Source: Klenkia soli (GTDB lineage Bacteria; Actinomycetota; Actinomycetes; Mycobacteriales; Geodermatophilaceae). Taken from it: a DNA stretch of 64,000 bases. Positions 41,681 through 47,730 of this stretch are shown here, piece after piece. Position numbers and translations under genes: made by a program. The notes beneath the pieces are model-generated. The model saw only the letters and a program-made list of their open reading frames with translations. It was not told where the DNA came from and searched no databases. The DNA lies in contig NZ_FNIR01000002.1 in assembly GCF_900103975.1 (NCBI RefSeq), forward strand, positions 310,001 through 374,000, read 5' to 3'. How positions within the stretch are numbered: the first letter of the stretch is position 1; every line of letters starts with the position of its first letter.

Positions 41681-42337
41681 ATGACCGAGGACCAGTCGAG
41701 CGCGATCGGCCGTCGCCGGGCCGCAGCCCGCGACGACGGGCGGACCGCCTACCAGGACCGGCGGCAGGAGATCATCGCGGCCGCGGCCGGGTTGTTCAAG
41801 ACGCACGGCTTCCGGGGGACCAGCCTGGCCCAGATCGCCGAGGCCCTGGGCACCGACCGGGCGACGCTCTACTACTACGTGGGCAGCAAGGAGGAGCTCT
41901 TCGACGAGGTGGTCAGCGACGCCGTGCGGGCCAACGTCGCCCGCGCCGAGGCGATCCGCGACGGCACCGGCCCCGCCCCCGAGAAGCTGCGCCGGTTGGT
42001 CACCGAGCTCATGGACTCCTACGCGGCCACCTATCCCTTCCTGTACGTCTTCATCCAGGAGAACCTCTCCCACGTAGGGGAGAAGCGCAGCGCCTGGTCG
42101 ACCGAGATGCGCGCGCTCAACCGGGCGTACGAGGAGTGCGTCACCTCGGTCATCGAGGCCGGCGTCGCCGAGGGCACCGTGCGCCCGGTGGCCGAGCCCT
42201 GGGTGCTGGCCTACGGGCTCATCGGCATGGTCGGGTGGACCAACCGGTGGTTCAACCCCGAGAGGTCGACGGTCGACGCCGCCACCGTCGGGCGGGCCTA
42301 CGCCGACGTCCTGCTGGACGGGCTGACCCAGCGCTGA
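41681..42337 (+). CDS. TetR-family regulator of the BVMO catabolic cluster
   Basis: A 218-aa repressor. The HTH spans residues 28-75 (RQEIIAAAAGLFKTHGFRGTSLAQIAEALGTDRATLYYYVGSKEEL). The rest is a helical TetR_C domain with an aromatic pocket (SYAATYPFLYVFIQENLSHVG, YGLIGMVGWTNRWFNP), typical of regulators that sense acyl-CoAs or lipophilic compounds. It lies directly upstream of the catabolic genes. Three copies of a GTCAACG-N4-CGTTGAC palindrome in the next 6 kb are its probable binding sites. The regulatory link is inferred from position. Confidence 0.88.
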   Translation: MTEDQSSAIGRRRAAARDDGRTAYQDRRQEIIAAAAGLFKTHGFRGTSLAQIAEALGTDRATLYYYVGSKEELFDEVVSDAVRANVARAEAIRDGTGPAPEKLRRLVTELMDSYAATYPFLYVFIQENLSHVGEKRSAWSTEMRALNRAYEECVTSVIEAGVAEGTVRPVAEPWVLAYGLIGMVGWTNRWFNPERSTVDAATVGRAYADVLLDGLTQR

Positions 42338-42351
42338 TCCTCGCGCCACCT

Positions 42352-42375
42352 CGCGTCAACGTGTACGTTGACGCG
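42352..42375. promoter_or_regulatory. Operator copy 1 (CGCGTCAACG-TGTA-CGTTGACGCG)
   Basis: Perfect 10-bp arms flank a four-base centre. It contains TACGTT (42364-42369), a TANNNT -10 box eight bases before the ATG at 42378, so a bound repressor would block a leaderless promoter. The same motif occurs at 43243-43262 and 47707-47730. Confidence 0.8.
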
Positions 42376-42377
42376 CC

Positions 42378-43220
42378 ATGGTGGACAGCGTCGGGGTGGT
42401 CGGTGCCGGCACGATGGGCGTGGGCATCGCCTACGTCGTGGCGGTCACGGGAGCCCGCACCGTCGTCGTCGAACCCGACGACGCCCGCATGTCCGCCGTC
42501 CGCCGCGAGGTCGCCGGTGCTGCCGAGGCCGGGGTGCGGCGCGGCAAGCTGACCGCCGCCGTGGCCGACGGGCTGGCCGGCCGGCTCGAGCACGTGACCT
42601 CGGCCGACCAGCTGCCCGAGGGCCTGGACCTGGTCGTCGAGACCGTGCCCGAGGACCTCGACCTCAAGCGCCGGGTGCTGGCCGCGTGCGAGGCGCGCCG
42701 TCCGGCCGTGCTGGCCAGCAACACCAGCGCGCTGTCGATCGACACCCTGGCCGCGGGCCTGGCCCGGCCCGAGGACTTCCTGGGTCTGCACTTCTTCAAC
42801 CCGGTGTGGTCGATCCCCGTCGTCGAGGTGGTCCGCGGCGCCCGCACCGGCGCGGCGACGCTGGAGACCGCGTTGGCCGCCGTGGCCGCGATCGGCAAGG
42901 AGTCCGCGGTCGTCGCCGACGCGCCGGGCTTCGCCACCAGCCGGCTGGACGTCGTCGCCGCGCTGGAGGCCATCCGCATGGTCGAGCAGGGCGTCGGCGA
43001 GCCCGCGGACATCGACCGGGCGATCCAGCTGGCCTACCGGCACCCGGTCGGACCGCTGCGGCTGACCGACATCGTCGGGCTCGACGTCCGGCTGCACATC
43101 GCCCGCAACCTCGAGGTCGCCCTCGGTCCGCAGTTCGCCCCGCCACAGCTGCTGGTCGACAAGGTGGCCGCCGGCGAGCTGGGCGCGAAGTCGGGCCGCG
43201 GGTTCTACGACTGGCATTGA
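42378..43220 (+). CDS. 3-hydroxyacyl-CoA dehydrogenase family protein
   Basis: A 280-aa enzyme that oxidises a 3-hydroxyacyl-CoA to the 3-ketoacyl-CoA with NAD+. The Rossmann motif is VGVVGAGTMGVGIAYVVAV (residues 5-23), followed by ASNTSALSI, the catalytic-His region FLGLHFFNPVWSIPVVEVVR, and DAPGFATSRLDV. The C-terminal helical domain ends KSGRGFYDW. Compared with the usual LHFFNPV-MPLVE pattern the substrate loop is slightly altered, so a non-standard acyl chain is possible. The ATG is preceded by a leaderless -10 box inside an operator palindrome. It is the first gene of the catabolic cluster. Confidence 0.92.
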   Translation: MVDSVGVVGAGTMGVGIAYVVAVTGARTVVVEPDDARMSAVRREVAGAAEAGVRRGKLTAAVADGLAGRLEHVTSADQLPEGLDLVVETVPEDLDLKRRVLAACEARRPAVLASNTSALSIDTLAAGLARPEDFLGLHFFNPVWSIPVVEVVRGARTGAATLETALAAVAAIGKESAVVADAPGFATSRLDVVAALEAIRMVEQGVGEPADIDRAIQLAYRHPVGPLRLTDIVGLDVRLHIARNLEVALGPQFAPPQLLVDKVAAGELGAKSGRGFYDWH

Positions 43221-43242
43221 CGTGGTCGGGGTCACTCCCTAC

Positions 43243-45978: not shown

Positions 45979-46742
45979 TGCATCCCCTCGCCCGGCTGGC
46001 GCAGCGGTTCACGGTCGACTGGCTGGACCGGGCCGACCCGGCGGTGCCGCCGGAGATCATGGTGCCGGGCTACCGGGTGCACATCGGCGACGTCGAGCTG
46101 GTCGGCCTGGAGCAGTACGTGCCGGCCACCGTCGGCCAGCTCGAGCAGTTCCCCGGCCTGCAGCTCACCGTGCACGGCCTCGTGCTCACCGACGACCGGT
46201 TGGCGCTGCACTTCACCGAGCACGGCGCCTCGGTCCGGCACGACCTGCGGGCGGCGGCCTGGACAGGCGTCGCGCTGTTCGCCCGGGACGGCGACCGGCT
46301 GGCCGAGAACTGGACCCAGGAGGACTACGCGGCCCGTCGCCGGCAGCTGGCCGACGGGGTGCCCGACACGATCGGCCCGCCGGCGGTCGCACCGTGGACG
46401 ACGGCGCCGGCGGCACCCGACCCGGCCGCGGAGGACGTCGTCCGCCGCTGGCTGGGGTCGGCGCAGCCCGGGTTCGACGACGTGACCTGGGACGACGGCC
46501 TCACCGCCGCGCTCGTCCGGCCCCGCGGTGTCGAGGTGGCCGAGCTGTTCTCCGCCGGCCCGACCGTGGCGTTCGCGGCCACCCAGACCGGGGATTTCCT
46601 GGGCACCGACGAGCTGCCGGCCGCGGACGGACCGGTCCGGCTCGGACTGGCCGGGCTCGTGCAGGTGCGGGACGGTGTGGTGGCCGGCGGCGTCGTGGTC
46701 AGCGACCGGCACGGCCTGCTGAGGTCCCGCGCCCGCCGCTGA
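45978..46742 (+). CDS. Protein with two NTF2/SnoaL-like domains
   Basis: A 254-aa cytosolic protein. Residues 1-120 (VDWLDRADPAVPPEIMVPGYRV, GLQLTVHGLVLTDDRLALHFTEHG, AENWTQEDYAARRRQLAD) have the cone-shaped NTF2/SnoaL fold of ketosteroid isomerases and polyketide cyclases. Residues 140-254 look like a second, more divergent copy (AEDVVRRWLGSAQPGFDDVTW to GGVVVSDRHGLLR). Such proteins isomerise, hydrate or bind ring or polyketide substrates. ATG 45978 overlaps the upstream stop as TGATG. It ends ten bases from the convergent enoyl-CoA hydratase. Its place in the cluster suggests action on the pathway intermediate; the reaction is unknown. Confidence 0.72.
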   Translation: MHPLARLAQRFTVDWLDRADPAVPPEIMVPGYRVHIGDVELVGLEQYVPATVGQLEQFPGLQLTVHGLVLTDDRLALHFTEHGASVRHDLRAAAWTGVALFARDGDRLAENWTQEDYAARRRQLADGVPDTIGPPAVAPWTTAPAAPDPAAEDVVRRWLGSAQPGFDDVTWDDGLTAALVRPRGVEVAELFSAGPTVAFAATQTGDFLGTDELPAADGPVRLGLAGLVQVRDGVVAGGVVVSDRHGLLRSRARR

Positions 46743-46752
46743 CCCCCGGAGG

Positions 46753-47676
46753 TCATCCCCGCTCGGCGCGCTCCGCGGCCCGGCCGGCCTGGTAGGCCTC
46801 CCAGTAGGTGCGGTGGTGGCTGAACGGCTCGTCCCGGTCCTCCACCGCGGCCCGCACGCCGTCGGCGCGCTGGATGCGCTCGAAGTCGGCCATCGCCGGC
46901 CCGGCGATCGCCATCGCGTCGGCGTCGTTGGCCGCGGCGATCGCCGAGGCGATGCCCATGGCGTCCCACCAGCGGTTGGTGGCCTCCTTGTGGCTGTAGA
47001 GCATCTCCAGCGGCACGTGGGAGATCCGCTCGGCGTACGCGCGGGCCACCGCCATCACCTCGTCGGCCGGCACCGCCTTGTTCACCAGGCCGTACTGCTC
47101 GGCCTCGGTGCCGGTCATCGAGTCGCCGGTGAACAGCCACTCCTTGGTCTTGCGCATGCCCAGGTGCACCGGCCACATGCCGAACGTGTGGATCTCGCCC
47201 ATCGAGCGCGCCTCGGGCTGGCCGAAGGTCGCGTCGTCGGCGGCGAAGACGACGTCCAGCACGCCGGCGAGGTCGAGCCCACCGGCCACGCACGCGCCGC
47301 GGACCACGCCGACGGTGGCCTGCCGGATCCGCCACAGCCGCATCCAGCGCTCGCGGGACTCGTGGAACTCGCGGCGGCTGAAGATCGGGGCGCGGCGGTG
47401 CGGGCGGCTGTCCTCGGGGCGGGACGGCTCACCGGTGCCCCAGAGGTAGCCCCACTCGGAGAGGTCGTAGCCGGTGCAGAAGTTCTTGCCGTTGCTGGCG
47501 ACGATCAGCACCCGGGTGTCGTCGTCGGAGTCCAGGTCGTCGAGGACGTCGTCCATCTCGTCGCGCAGCTGCCGGCAGAGCGCGTTGCCGCGCTCGGGCC
47601 GGTTCAGCGTCATCGTGGCGATCCGGCCCTCCTTCTCGTAGGTCAGCATCTCCGGGTTCGGCACCCTGCGGCCCAT
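46753..47676 (-). CDS. Enoyl-CoA hydratase/isomerase (crotonase) family protein
   Basis: A 307-aa crotonase-fold enzyme. It shows ATMTLNRPERGNALCRQLRDE, the oxyanion-hole segments NGKNFCTGYDL and RGACVAGGLDLAGVLDVVFA, and TFGQPEARSMGEIHTFG. The first catalytic Glu of hydratases (in GGGCEL) is Asp here (GGLDLA), while the second (GQPE) is kept. Crotonases with this change often hydrolyse C-C bonds or isomerise rather than hydrate. It is longer than usual by about 40 residues because of an insert around residues 65-95. GAGGAGA precedes the ATG at 47676. It is divergent from the BVMO and shares operator copy 3. Confidence 0.9.
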   Translation of the reverse strand: MGRRVPNPEMLTYEKEGRIATMTLNRPERGNALCRQLRDEMDDVLDDLDSDDDTRVLIVASNGKNFCTGYDLSEWGYLWGTGEPSRPEDSRPHRRAPIFSRREFHESRERWMRLWRIRQATVGVVRGACVAGGLDLAGVLDVVFAADDATFGQPEARSMGEIHTFGMWPVHLGMRKTKEWLFTGDSMTGTEAEQYGLVNKAVPADEVMAVARAYAERISHVPLEMLYSHKEATNRWWDAMGIASAIAAANDADAMAIAGPAMADFERIQRADGVRAAVEDRDEPFSHHRTYWEAYQAGRAAERAERG

Positions 47677-47706
47677 GGCGGTCTCCTCTGTCCTCGTCGT
47701 CGAAGC

Positions 47707-47730
47707 GCTGTCAACGTATGCGTTGACAGC
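47707..47730. promoter_or_regulatory. Operator copy 3 (GCTGTCAACG-TATG-CGTTGACAGC)
   Basis: Perfect 10-bp arms flank TATG in the divergent spacer between the enoyl-CoA hydratase and BVMO genes. The minus-strand TACGTT (47718-47713) inside it is a TANNNT -10 box for the hydratase. A repressor there would control both directions. Confidence 0.8.

What the first reader, a model, noticed from the sequence alone, without database searches (positions are those of the whole stretch)
41681..47730. A TetR regulon: one palindrome on the promoters of the BVMO catabolic cluster
Copies at 42352-42375, 43243-43262 and 47707-47730 have perfect 8-10 bp arms of the form (G)TCAACG-N4-CGTTGA(C). In each case a TANNNT -10 box lies inside the motif (TACGTT, TAGCGT, minus-strand TACGTT). 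The sites are upstream of the 3-hydroxyacyl-CoA dehydrogenase, the ACAD-ligase-NTF2 operon, and the divergent enoyl-CoA hydratase and BVMO operon. The TetR gene at 41681 precedes them all. The motif was not noticed elsewhere in the window in palindromic form. The repressor-operator link is inference from position and shared sequence.
Basis: partly seen in the sequence, partly recalled or inferred. Interest (0 to 1): 0.75.

Follow-up and report, generated by a model that had tools for sequence, protein, structure and literature searches.

The report
TetR repressor with three matching operators
A soil actinobacterium keeps a small set of degradation genes under one local switch protein, and the DNA signal that this protein very probably reads also sits beside its relatives in distant bacteria, which makes the predicted switch well supported but of an ordinary kind.

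Summary
The three perfect palindromes are the only exact TCAACG-N4-CGTTGA sites in the 4.76-Mb genome (about 0.01 expected for the 18-bp form). The TetR link was inference; comparative data now support it strongly. Around 36 TetR homologs (36-85% identical, Actinobacteria and Proteobacteria) the core GTCAAC-N6-GTTGAC (at most 1 mismatch) occurs 114 times in 32 loci; other arm orders give at most 15, other spacings at most 7. Over 397 genomes of the order, the 18-bp site is in 11 of 15 with the TetR and 12 of 382 without (p 2e-12). Four loci with the SnoaL gene but no such TetR have no site. A matrix built without the window ranks the three sites 1-3. So this is a cluster-situated TetR repressor acting on the 3HCDH, ACAD-ligase-SnoaL, ECH and BVMO units. 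An acyl-CoA inducer is inference, and binding is untested. The kind is known; nine paper searches showed no paper describing this operator or subfamily.

The parts
41681..42337 (+). tetR, 218 aa: the predicted repressor (TetR_N plus TetR_C_24)
   Evidence: Pfam TetR_N 7.5e-15, TetR_C_24 6.2e-17; predicted structure pLDDT 87.3, nearest solved folds include PfmR and KstR2; recognition helix DRA[ST]xYYY shared by all 37 aligned proteins
42352..42375 (.). operator 1 (core 42355-42372, GTCAACGTGTACGTTGAC), 5 bp before the 3HCDH start codon; candidate -10 TACGTT at 42364-42369
   Evidence: matrix score 28.1 bits; the same 18-mer precedes 3HCDH in L035, L036 and L037
42378..43220 (+). 3-hydroxyacyl-CoA dehydrogenase
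   Evidence: Pfam 3HCDH_N 2e-47, 3HCDH 1.3e-23
43217..43245 (+). predicted ACAD promoter: -35 TTGACG 43217-43222, 17-bp spacer, -10 TACCGT 43240-43245, whose last two bases are the operator's first two
   Evidence: same arrangement in L035-L038, L042 and (18-bp spacer) L044
43243..43262 (.). operator 2 (core 43244-43261, GTCAACGGTAGCGTTGAC), 14 bp before the ACAD start codon
   Evidence: matrix score 26.4 bits
43276..44472 (+). acyl-CoA dehydrogenase, first gene of the ACAD-ligase-SnoaL unit
   Evidence: Pfam
44476..45978 (+). AMP-binding acyl-CoA ligase
   Evidence: Pfam AMP-binding 1.1e-77
45978..46742 (+). SnoaL/NTF2-like protein, 254 aa
   Evidence: Pfam SnoaL 7.7e-13
46753..47676 (-). enoyl-CoA hydratase, divergent from BVMO
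   Evidence: Pfam ECH_1 2.4e-38
47707..47730 (.). operator 3 (core 47710-47727, GTCAACGTATGCGTTGAC) between divergent ECH (33 bp) and BVMO (30 bp) starts
   Evidence: matrix score 28.9 bits; a site lies between the BVMO and ECH homologs also in L035 and L044
47713..47741 (-). predicted ECH promoter: -35 TGGACA (47741-47736), 17-bp spacer, -10 TACGTT (47718-47713) inside operator 3
   Evidence: the same arrangement can be read in L035 in the printout (by eye)
47758..49350 (+). Baeyer-Villiger monooxygenase, 530 aa
   Evidence: type I fingerprint in the form YAGTVLHTARWP at residue 151, and GxGxxG motifs; Pyr_redox and FMO-like Pfam; the fingerprint definition is recalled
49347..51047 (+). second AMP-binding acyl-CoA ligase, 566 aa
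   Evidence: Pfam
51044..53476 (+). 810-aa fusion of acyl-CoA ligase and alpha/beta-hydrolase, last gene of the BVMO unit
   Evidence: Pfam AMP-binding 1.3e-73 and Abhydrolase_3 9e-68 in one open frame

Best explanation
The TetR protein encoded at 41681-42337 is a cluster-situated repressor. As a dimer it binds the palindrome GTCAAC-N6-GTTGAC at three places and, by covering the -10 region or the transcription start, shuts off four units: 3HCDH, ACAD-ligase-SnoaL, ECH, and BVMO-ligase-ligase/hydrolase. An intermediate of the pathway, most likely an acyl-CoA made by one of the cluster's own ligases, binds its C-terminal pocket and releases it, so that the BVMO plus beta-oxidation-type pathway is switched on by its substrate. 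Shown by computation: the sites, their uniqueness, their co-occurrence with this TetR and their conservation around its homologs. Inferred: binding, repression, promoter positions, operon structure, acyl-CoA as inducer, a ketone as substrate.
For: Three exact sites in the genome, all here, against 0.008-0.015 expected. Over 397 genomes the 18-bp site is in 11 of 15 with the TetR and 12 of 382 without (p 2e-12; without the own genus 7 of 10 against 12 of 379, p 2e-8); the reversed control pattern is in 11 of 397 by my count, so the 12 look like background. Around 36 homologs 114 sites in 32 loci, controls at most 15 and 7. In 12 whole genomes 49 of 55 exact sites, by my count, lie on one contig each within about 48 kb of the tetR (coordinates). 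SnoaL-positive, TetR-negative loci: no site in 4 of 4. A matrix from the other loci gives 26.4-28.9 bits for the three sites, next best 8.6 in the window. One TetR of this subfamily in the genome, next best 27-28% identical. Fold neighbours include AibR and FadR with acyl-CoA ligands and KstR2.
Against: No binding or expression data. Two of 15 TetR-positive genomes have no site in the stretch examined: G004 (gene cluster gone, lone tetR by a thiolase) and G280 (two homologs, 36-38% identical). Four of the 36 loci have no site: L039, L046, L050, L061; the last is a 3.5-kb fragment. The tetR itself has no site upstream here, unlike many TetR repressors. The thiolase and metallo-hydrolase genes of the neighbourhood have no site in the window. 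The ligand class rests on fold resemblance and gene content only.
Confidence: 0.9

Rival explanations
1. The palindrome is read by another regulator, or is a promoter element (its arms contain TTGAC, like a -35 box), and travels with the catabolic genes and not with this TetR.
For: Each arm reads TTGAC outward; cluster and tetR are mostly linked, so both would co-occur with the site.
Against: The distant homologs L055-L070 carry the site in 15 of 16 loci although homologs of 3HCDH, ACAD and SnoaL were not found in any of the 16 (weak ligase, hydratase or BVMO matches were). Of 6 TetR-positive, SnoaL-negative genomes 4 have the exact site, while 4 of 4 TetR-negative, SnoaL-positive loci have none (one of the four, G069, has one exact site on another contig, and a TetR only 29% identical in its locus).
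Confidence: 0.06
2. The TetR acts as an activator, or as both, not as a simple repressor.
For: Some TetR-family proteins activate (FasR is named an activator in NCBIfam); the sites sit close to promoters.
Against: Sites at or over the predicted -10 and within 5-33 bp of start codons suit blocking of RNA polymerase, not recruitment.
Confidence: 0.05
3. Chance palindromes in a GC-rich genome.
For: With 3 mismatches allowed the window holds 62 matches against 18 expected, so loose matches are common.
Against: Exact sites: 3 found, about 0.01 expected per genome, all within 5.4 kb; conserved in orthologous promoters.
Confidence: 0.001

Closest known systems
KstR2 (Rv3557c, TetR repressor of the last-two-steroid-ring regulon; PDB 4w97, 4w1u)
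   Same: TetR fold (TM 0.78 on the query, 25% identity); local catabolic regulon with CoA ligase, acyl-CoA dehydrogenase, hydratase and thiolase; effector HIP-CoA, product of the regulon's ligase FadD3 (passages of PMC5380842)
   Different: Different gene set; its operator was not compared here, and the one I recall (CAAG-NN-CTTG type) differs
PfmR of Thermus thermophilus (PDB 3vpr)
   Same: Best solved match by E-value in sequence (6.3e-22) and fold (29-30% identity)
   Different: From another phylum; its operator is recalled as TACCGACCGNTNGGTN, not checked here, and differs
BkaR / Rv2506 of mycobacteria (PDB 6yj2)
   Same: Local TetR repressor of an acyl-CoA-type catabolic operon; 16-bp palindromic core with N4 centre, bound as a dimer (passages of PMC3920632)
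   Different: Operator GTTA-N-T-N4-A-N-TAAC; autoregulated; 25% identity
MbdR of Azoarcus sp. CIB
   Same: TetR repressor over several promoters of one catabolic cluster, operators spanning the start and -10, induced by 3-methylbenzoyl-CoA (passages of PMC4424350)
   Different: Operator ATAC-N10-GTAT
EdcR of Caenibius tardaugens (estradiol cluster)
   Same: Cluster TetR with a putative palindromic operator over the -10 boxes of its promoters (passages of PMC8700777)
   Different: Operator TnnCnnTACnAnTnGTAnnGnnA; C-terminal domain TetR_C_11, here TetR_C_24

Membership tests
TetR family of transcriptional regulators | N-terminal TetR_N helix-turn-helix domain | tested here: met
   PF00440 54.9 bits against cut-off 24
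TetR family of transcriptional regulators | All-helical TetR fold with variable C-terminal ligand domain | tested here: met
   TetR_C_24 62.3 bits, cut-off 26.4; predicted model matches TetR structures, TM up to 0.78 on the query among the 50 listed
TetR family of transcriptional regulators | Binds a palindromic operator near its targets as a dimer | not testable with these tools
   Site association strongly supported; binding not measured
Cluster-situated TetR repressor regulon | Same operator at several promoters of the adjacent cluster and nowhere else in the genome | tested here: met
   3 of 3 exact sites within the cluster
Cluster-situated TetR repressor regulon | Release by a pathway intermediate | not testable with these tools
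   Acyl-CoA inferred from fold neighbours AibR, FadR and KstR2
Cluster-situated TetR repressor regulon | Autoregulation of the tetR gene (common, not defining) | tested here: not met
   No site of 2 mismatches or fewer upstream of 41681
KstR2 | Orthology to KstR2 | tested here: not met
   25% identity to 4w97; no model named KstR2 among the 21 NCBIfam matches
FadP (betaproteobacterial TetR, fatty-acid degradation) | Large regulon, 17.9 genes per genome on average (passages of PMC5343134) | tested here: inconclusive
   The 12 genomes examined hold 2-12 exact sites, mostly in one island; the FadP motif is not printed in the passages read
Named NCBIfam TetR subfamilies | Score above the curated cut-off | tested here: not met
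   Best of 21 matches: ScbR type, 49.3 bits, cut-off 150

The most novel reading that the evidence does not exclude
The window's TetR belongs to an unnamed subfamily, spread over Actinobacteria and Alpha-, Beta- and Gammaproteobacteria, in which the recognition helix (DRA[ST]xYYY) and the 18-bp operator (GTCAAC-N6-GTTGAC) have stayed fixed down to 36% protein identity while the regulated gene sets (often CoA ligases, BVMO and beta-oxidation genes) were exchanged: a portable repressor-operator module for oxidative catabolic islands.
Probability: 0.65. Interest if true: 0.55.

Novelty: new member of a known kind. Interest (0 to 1): 0.45.

Why it matters
It turns a positional guess into a specific, testable regulon for an uncharacterised BVMO catabolic cluster and gives one operator that predicts the regulated islands of an apparently unnamed TetR subfamily across phyla. 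Such regulator-operator pairs are useful as biosensors and as pointers to the unknown substrate. The mechanism itself is standard.

Tried and rejected
Chance: rejected. A site upstream of the thiolase or the metallo-hydrolase in the window: none with 2 mismatches or fewer, although K. brasiliensis has one before its metallo-hydrolase. A conserved promoter for 3HCDH: no convincing -35 seen by eye. A BVMO-direction promoter (TTGACA from the operator's right arm, 17 bp, CACAGT) is similar in the window and L035 (by eye), but its -10 is weak; not claimed. Stop-to-stop frame length over the sites of TetR-less genomes was uninformative at this GC content, and the roughly 3-kb loci used there are short: the seven TetR-positive genomes in the same call show no tetR in their loci either. 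Whether any motif of PMC4482099 equals this one could not be told: the passages show Table 2 without its logos. Literature: nine searches; from listings and passages no paper was seen to describe this operator or subfamily, but only passages of eight papers were read, and most subscription papers are not held.

Caveats on counts: one search used 36 of the 38 loci (L071 and L072, partial matches, dropped). Sites there and were chosen by at most 1 mismatch to the core, so the high conservation of the core positions is partly built in; the controls carry the weight. The 36 loci were found by peptide seeds that include YYYVGSKE, which favours that stretch; 12 of them (L038, L040, L041, L045-L048, L050-L054) read otherwise there, cannot have come in by that seed, and still have DRA[ST]xYYY. 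One search was given 12 of the 36 loci. The ACAD promoter check was given 7 of the 11 ACAD sites; L040, L041, L043 and L049 were left out because no such arrangement was seen in them by eye; the last two letters of its -10 (GT) are the operator's own.
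Full report
What is there. The window lies in a 4.76-Mb genome (G000) whose closest named TetR loci are from Klenkia. A tetR gene (41681-42337) is followed by 3HCDH, ACAD, acyl-CoA ligase and a SnoaL-like gene, then a divergent pair: enoyl-CoA hydratase on the minus strand, and BVMO, ligase and a ligase-hydrolase fusion on the plus strand. The BVMO carries the type I fingerprint in the form YAGTVLHTARWP (the fingerprint itself is recalled). Thiolase and metallo-hydrolase genes follow on the minus strand.

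The sites. The three palindromes are exact and at the stated coordinates. TCAACG-N4-CGTTGA and GTCAAC-N6-GTTGAC each occur exactly three times in the genome, in both cases these three. The expected number for the 18-bp form is 0.008 to 0.015 per genome. They lie 5 bp (3HCDH), 14 bp (ACAD), and 33 and 30 bp (ECH, BVMO) from start codons (counted).

Does the site go with the TetR? Among 60 relatives, 7 have the TetR (E 1e-30 or better) and 7 the exact 18-bp site; six have both. In 397 genomes of the order, partly the same, 15 have a homolog at E of 1e-40 or better and 23 have the exact site; 11 have both, p 2e-12, and without the own genus 7 of 10 against 12 of 379, p 2e-8. Of the four TetR-positive genomes without the exact 18-bp site, G188 and G294 have exact GTCAAC-N6-GTTGAC sites beside the same genes; G004 and G280 have none in the 19.5 kb examined. 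The 12 site-only genomes show no such TetR or cluster gene in the one fetched locus each, of 2.4-3 kb (G381 has a second site that was not fetched), and the reversed control pattern is in 11 of 397 genomes by my count, so they look like background. In 12 whole genomes with homologs, 55 exact core sites were found against 8 for the reversed control, and by my count 49 of the 55 lie on one contig each, within about 48 kb of tetR by the ranges.

Does it go with the TetR and not only with the genes? A SnoaL homolog (E 1e-30 or better) is in 13 of 397 genomes. Four of them have no TetR at the threshold (G059, G069, G113, G269): no site with 1 mismatch or fewer in the 17-19.5 kb around it. G069 has one exact site on another contig and a TetR of 29% identity in the locus. 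Six genomes have the TetR but no SnoaL homolog: four have the exact site. The distant homologs L055-L070 (36-46% identical) lie in loci where 3HCDH, ACAD and SnoaL homologs were not found; 15 of these 16 loci still have the site.

How conserved is it? Around 36 named homologs, 114 sites (1 mismatch or fewer) in 32 loci; the other 179 arm orders give at most 15, the median over all 180 being 1, and other spacings from 0 to 12 at most 7. The recognition helix reads DRA[ST]xYYY in all 37 aligned proteins, and D59, R60, A61, Y64, Y65 and Y66 are invariant in a 30-member alignment. A matrix built from the other loci puts the window's three sites first with 26.4-28.9 bits, next 8.6. The own genome shows no second member of this subfamily: two further TetR matches at E 1e-8 or better, 27-28% identical.

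How it likely works. At the ACAD unit a TTGAC(G/C)-N17/18-TA promoter runs into the operator, so a bound dimer would cover the start site; this arrangement is in 7 of 11 ACAD sites looked at. At ECH, TGGACA-N17-TACGTT puts the -10 inside the operator. The predicted structure (pLDDT 87.3) is nearest to PfmR and KstR2 and close to AibR and FadR, which have acyl-CoA complexes in the PDB; KstR2 responds to HIP-CoA (PMC5380842, passages). An acyl-CoA inducer is therefore likely but not shown. There is no operator before tetR itself; its start codon lies 9 bp behind the stop of a chemotaxis-receptor gene, so it may be made constitutively. Several distant homologs have a site just upstream of tetR, as expected of autoregulation.

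Known or new. Cluster TetR repressors with one palindrome on several promoters are well known (BkaR, MbdR, EdcR; passages), each with a different operator. No named NCBIfam TetR subfamily passes its cut-off. Nine paper searches showed no paper describing this operator or subfamily; RegPrecise itself and most subscription papers could not be searched. Verdict: a real, well-supported regulon prediction; a new member of a known kind, with an unusually well-fixed operator across phyla.

Noticed in passing
It could hydrolyse the BVMO ester and activate the acid in one protein.
   Followed up: partly
L102:3856; window 53568-55721: In K. brasiliensis the metallo-hydrolase/thiolase unit has its own operator (GTCAACAGCAGGGTTGAC, ending about 20 bp before the hydrolase match); in the window this unit has none.
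   Followed up: partly
   Followed up: partly
L083, L121 (G188): Besides an intact tetR, a second copy next to the 3HCDH-ACAD operators carries stop codons inside: a decayed duplicate.
   Followed up: no
window 39617-41671: A chemotaxis-receptor gene (MCP signalling domain) ends 9 bp before tetR; no homolog of it was found in the 41 tetR loci of relatives searched.
   Followed up: partly
G408 (Mycolicibacterium sp. CBMA 234, L066): Twelve exact core sites, nine on one contig over about 48 kb, the most sites among the 12 genomes examined.
   Followed up: no
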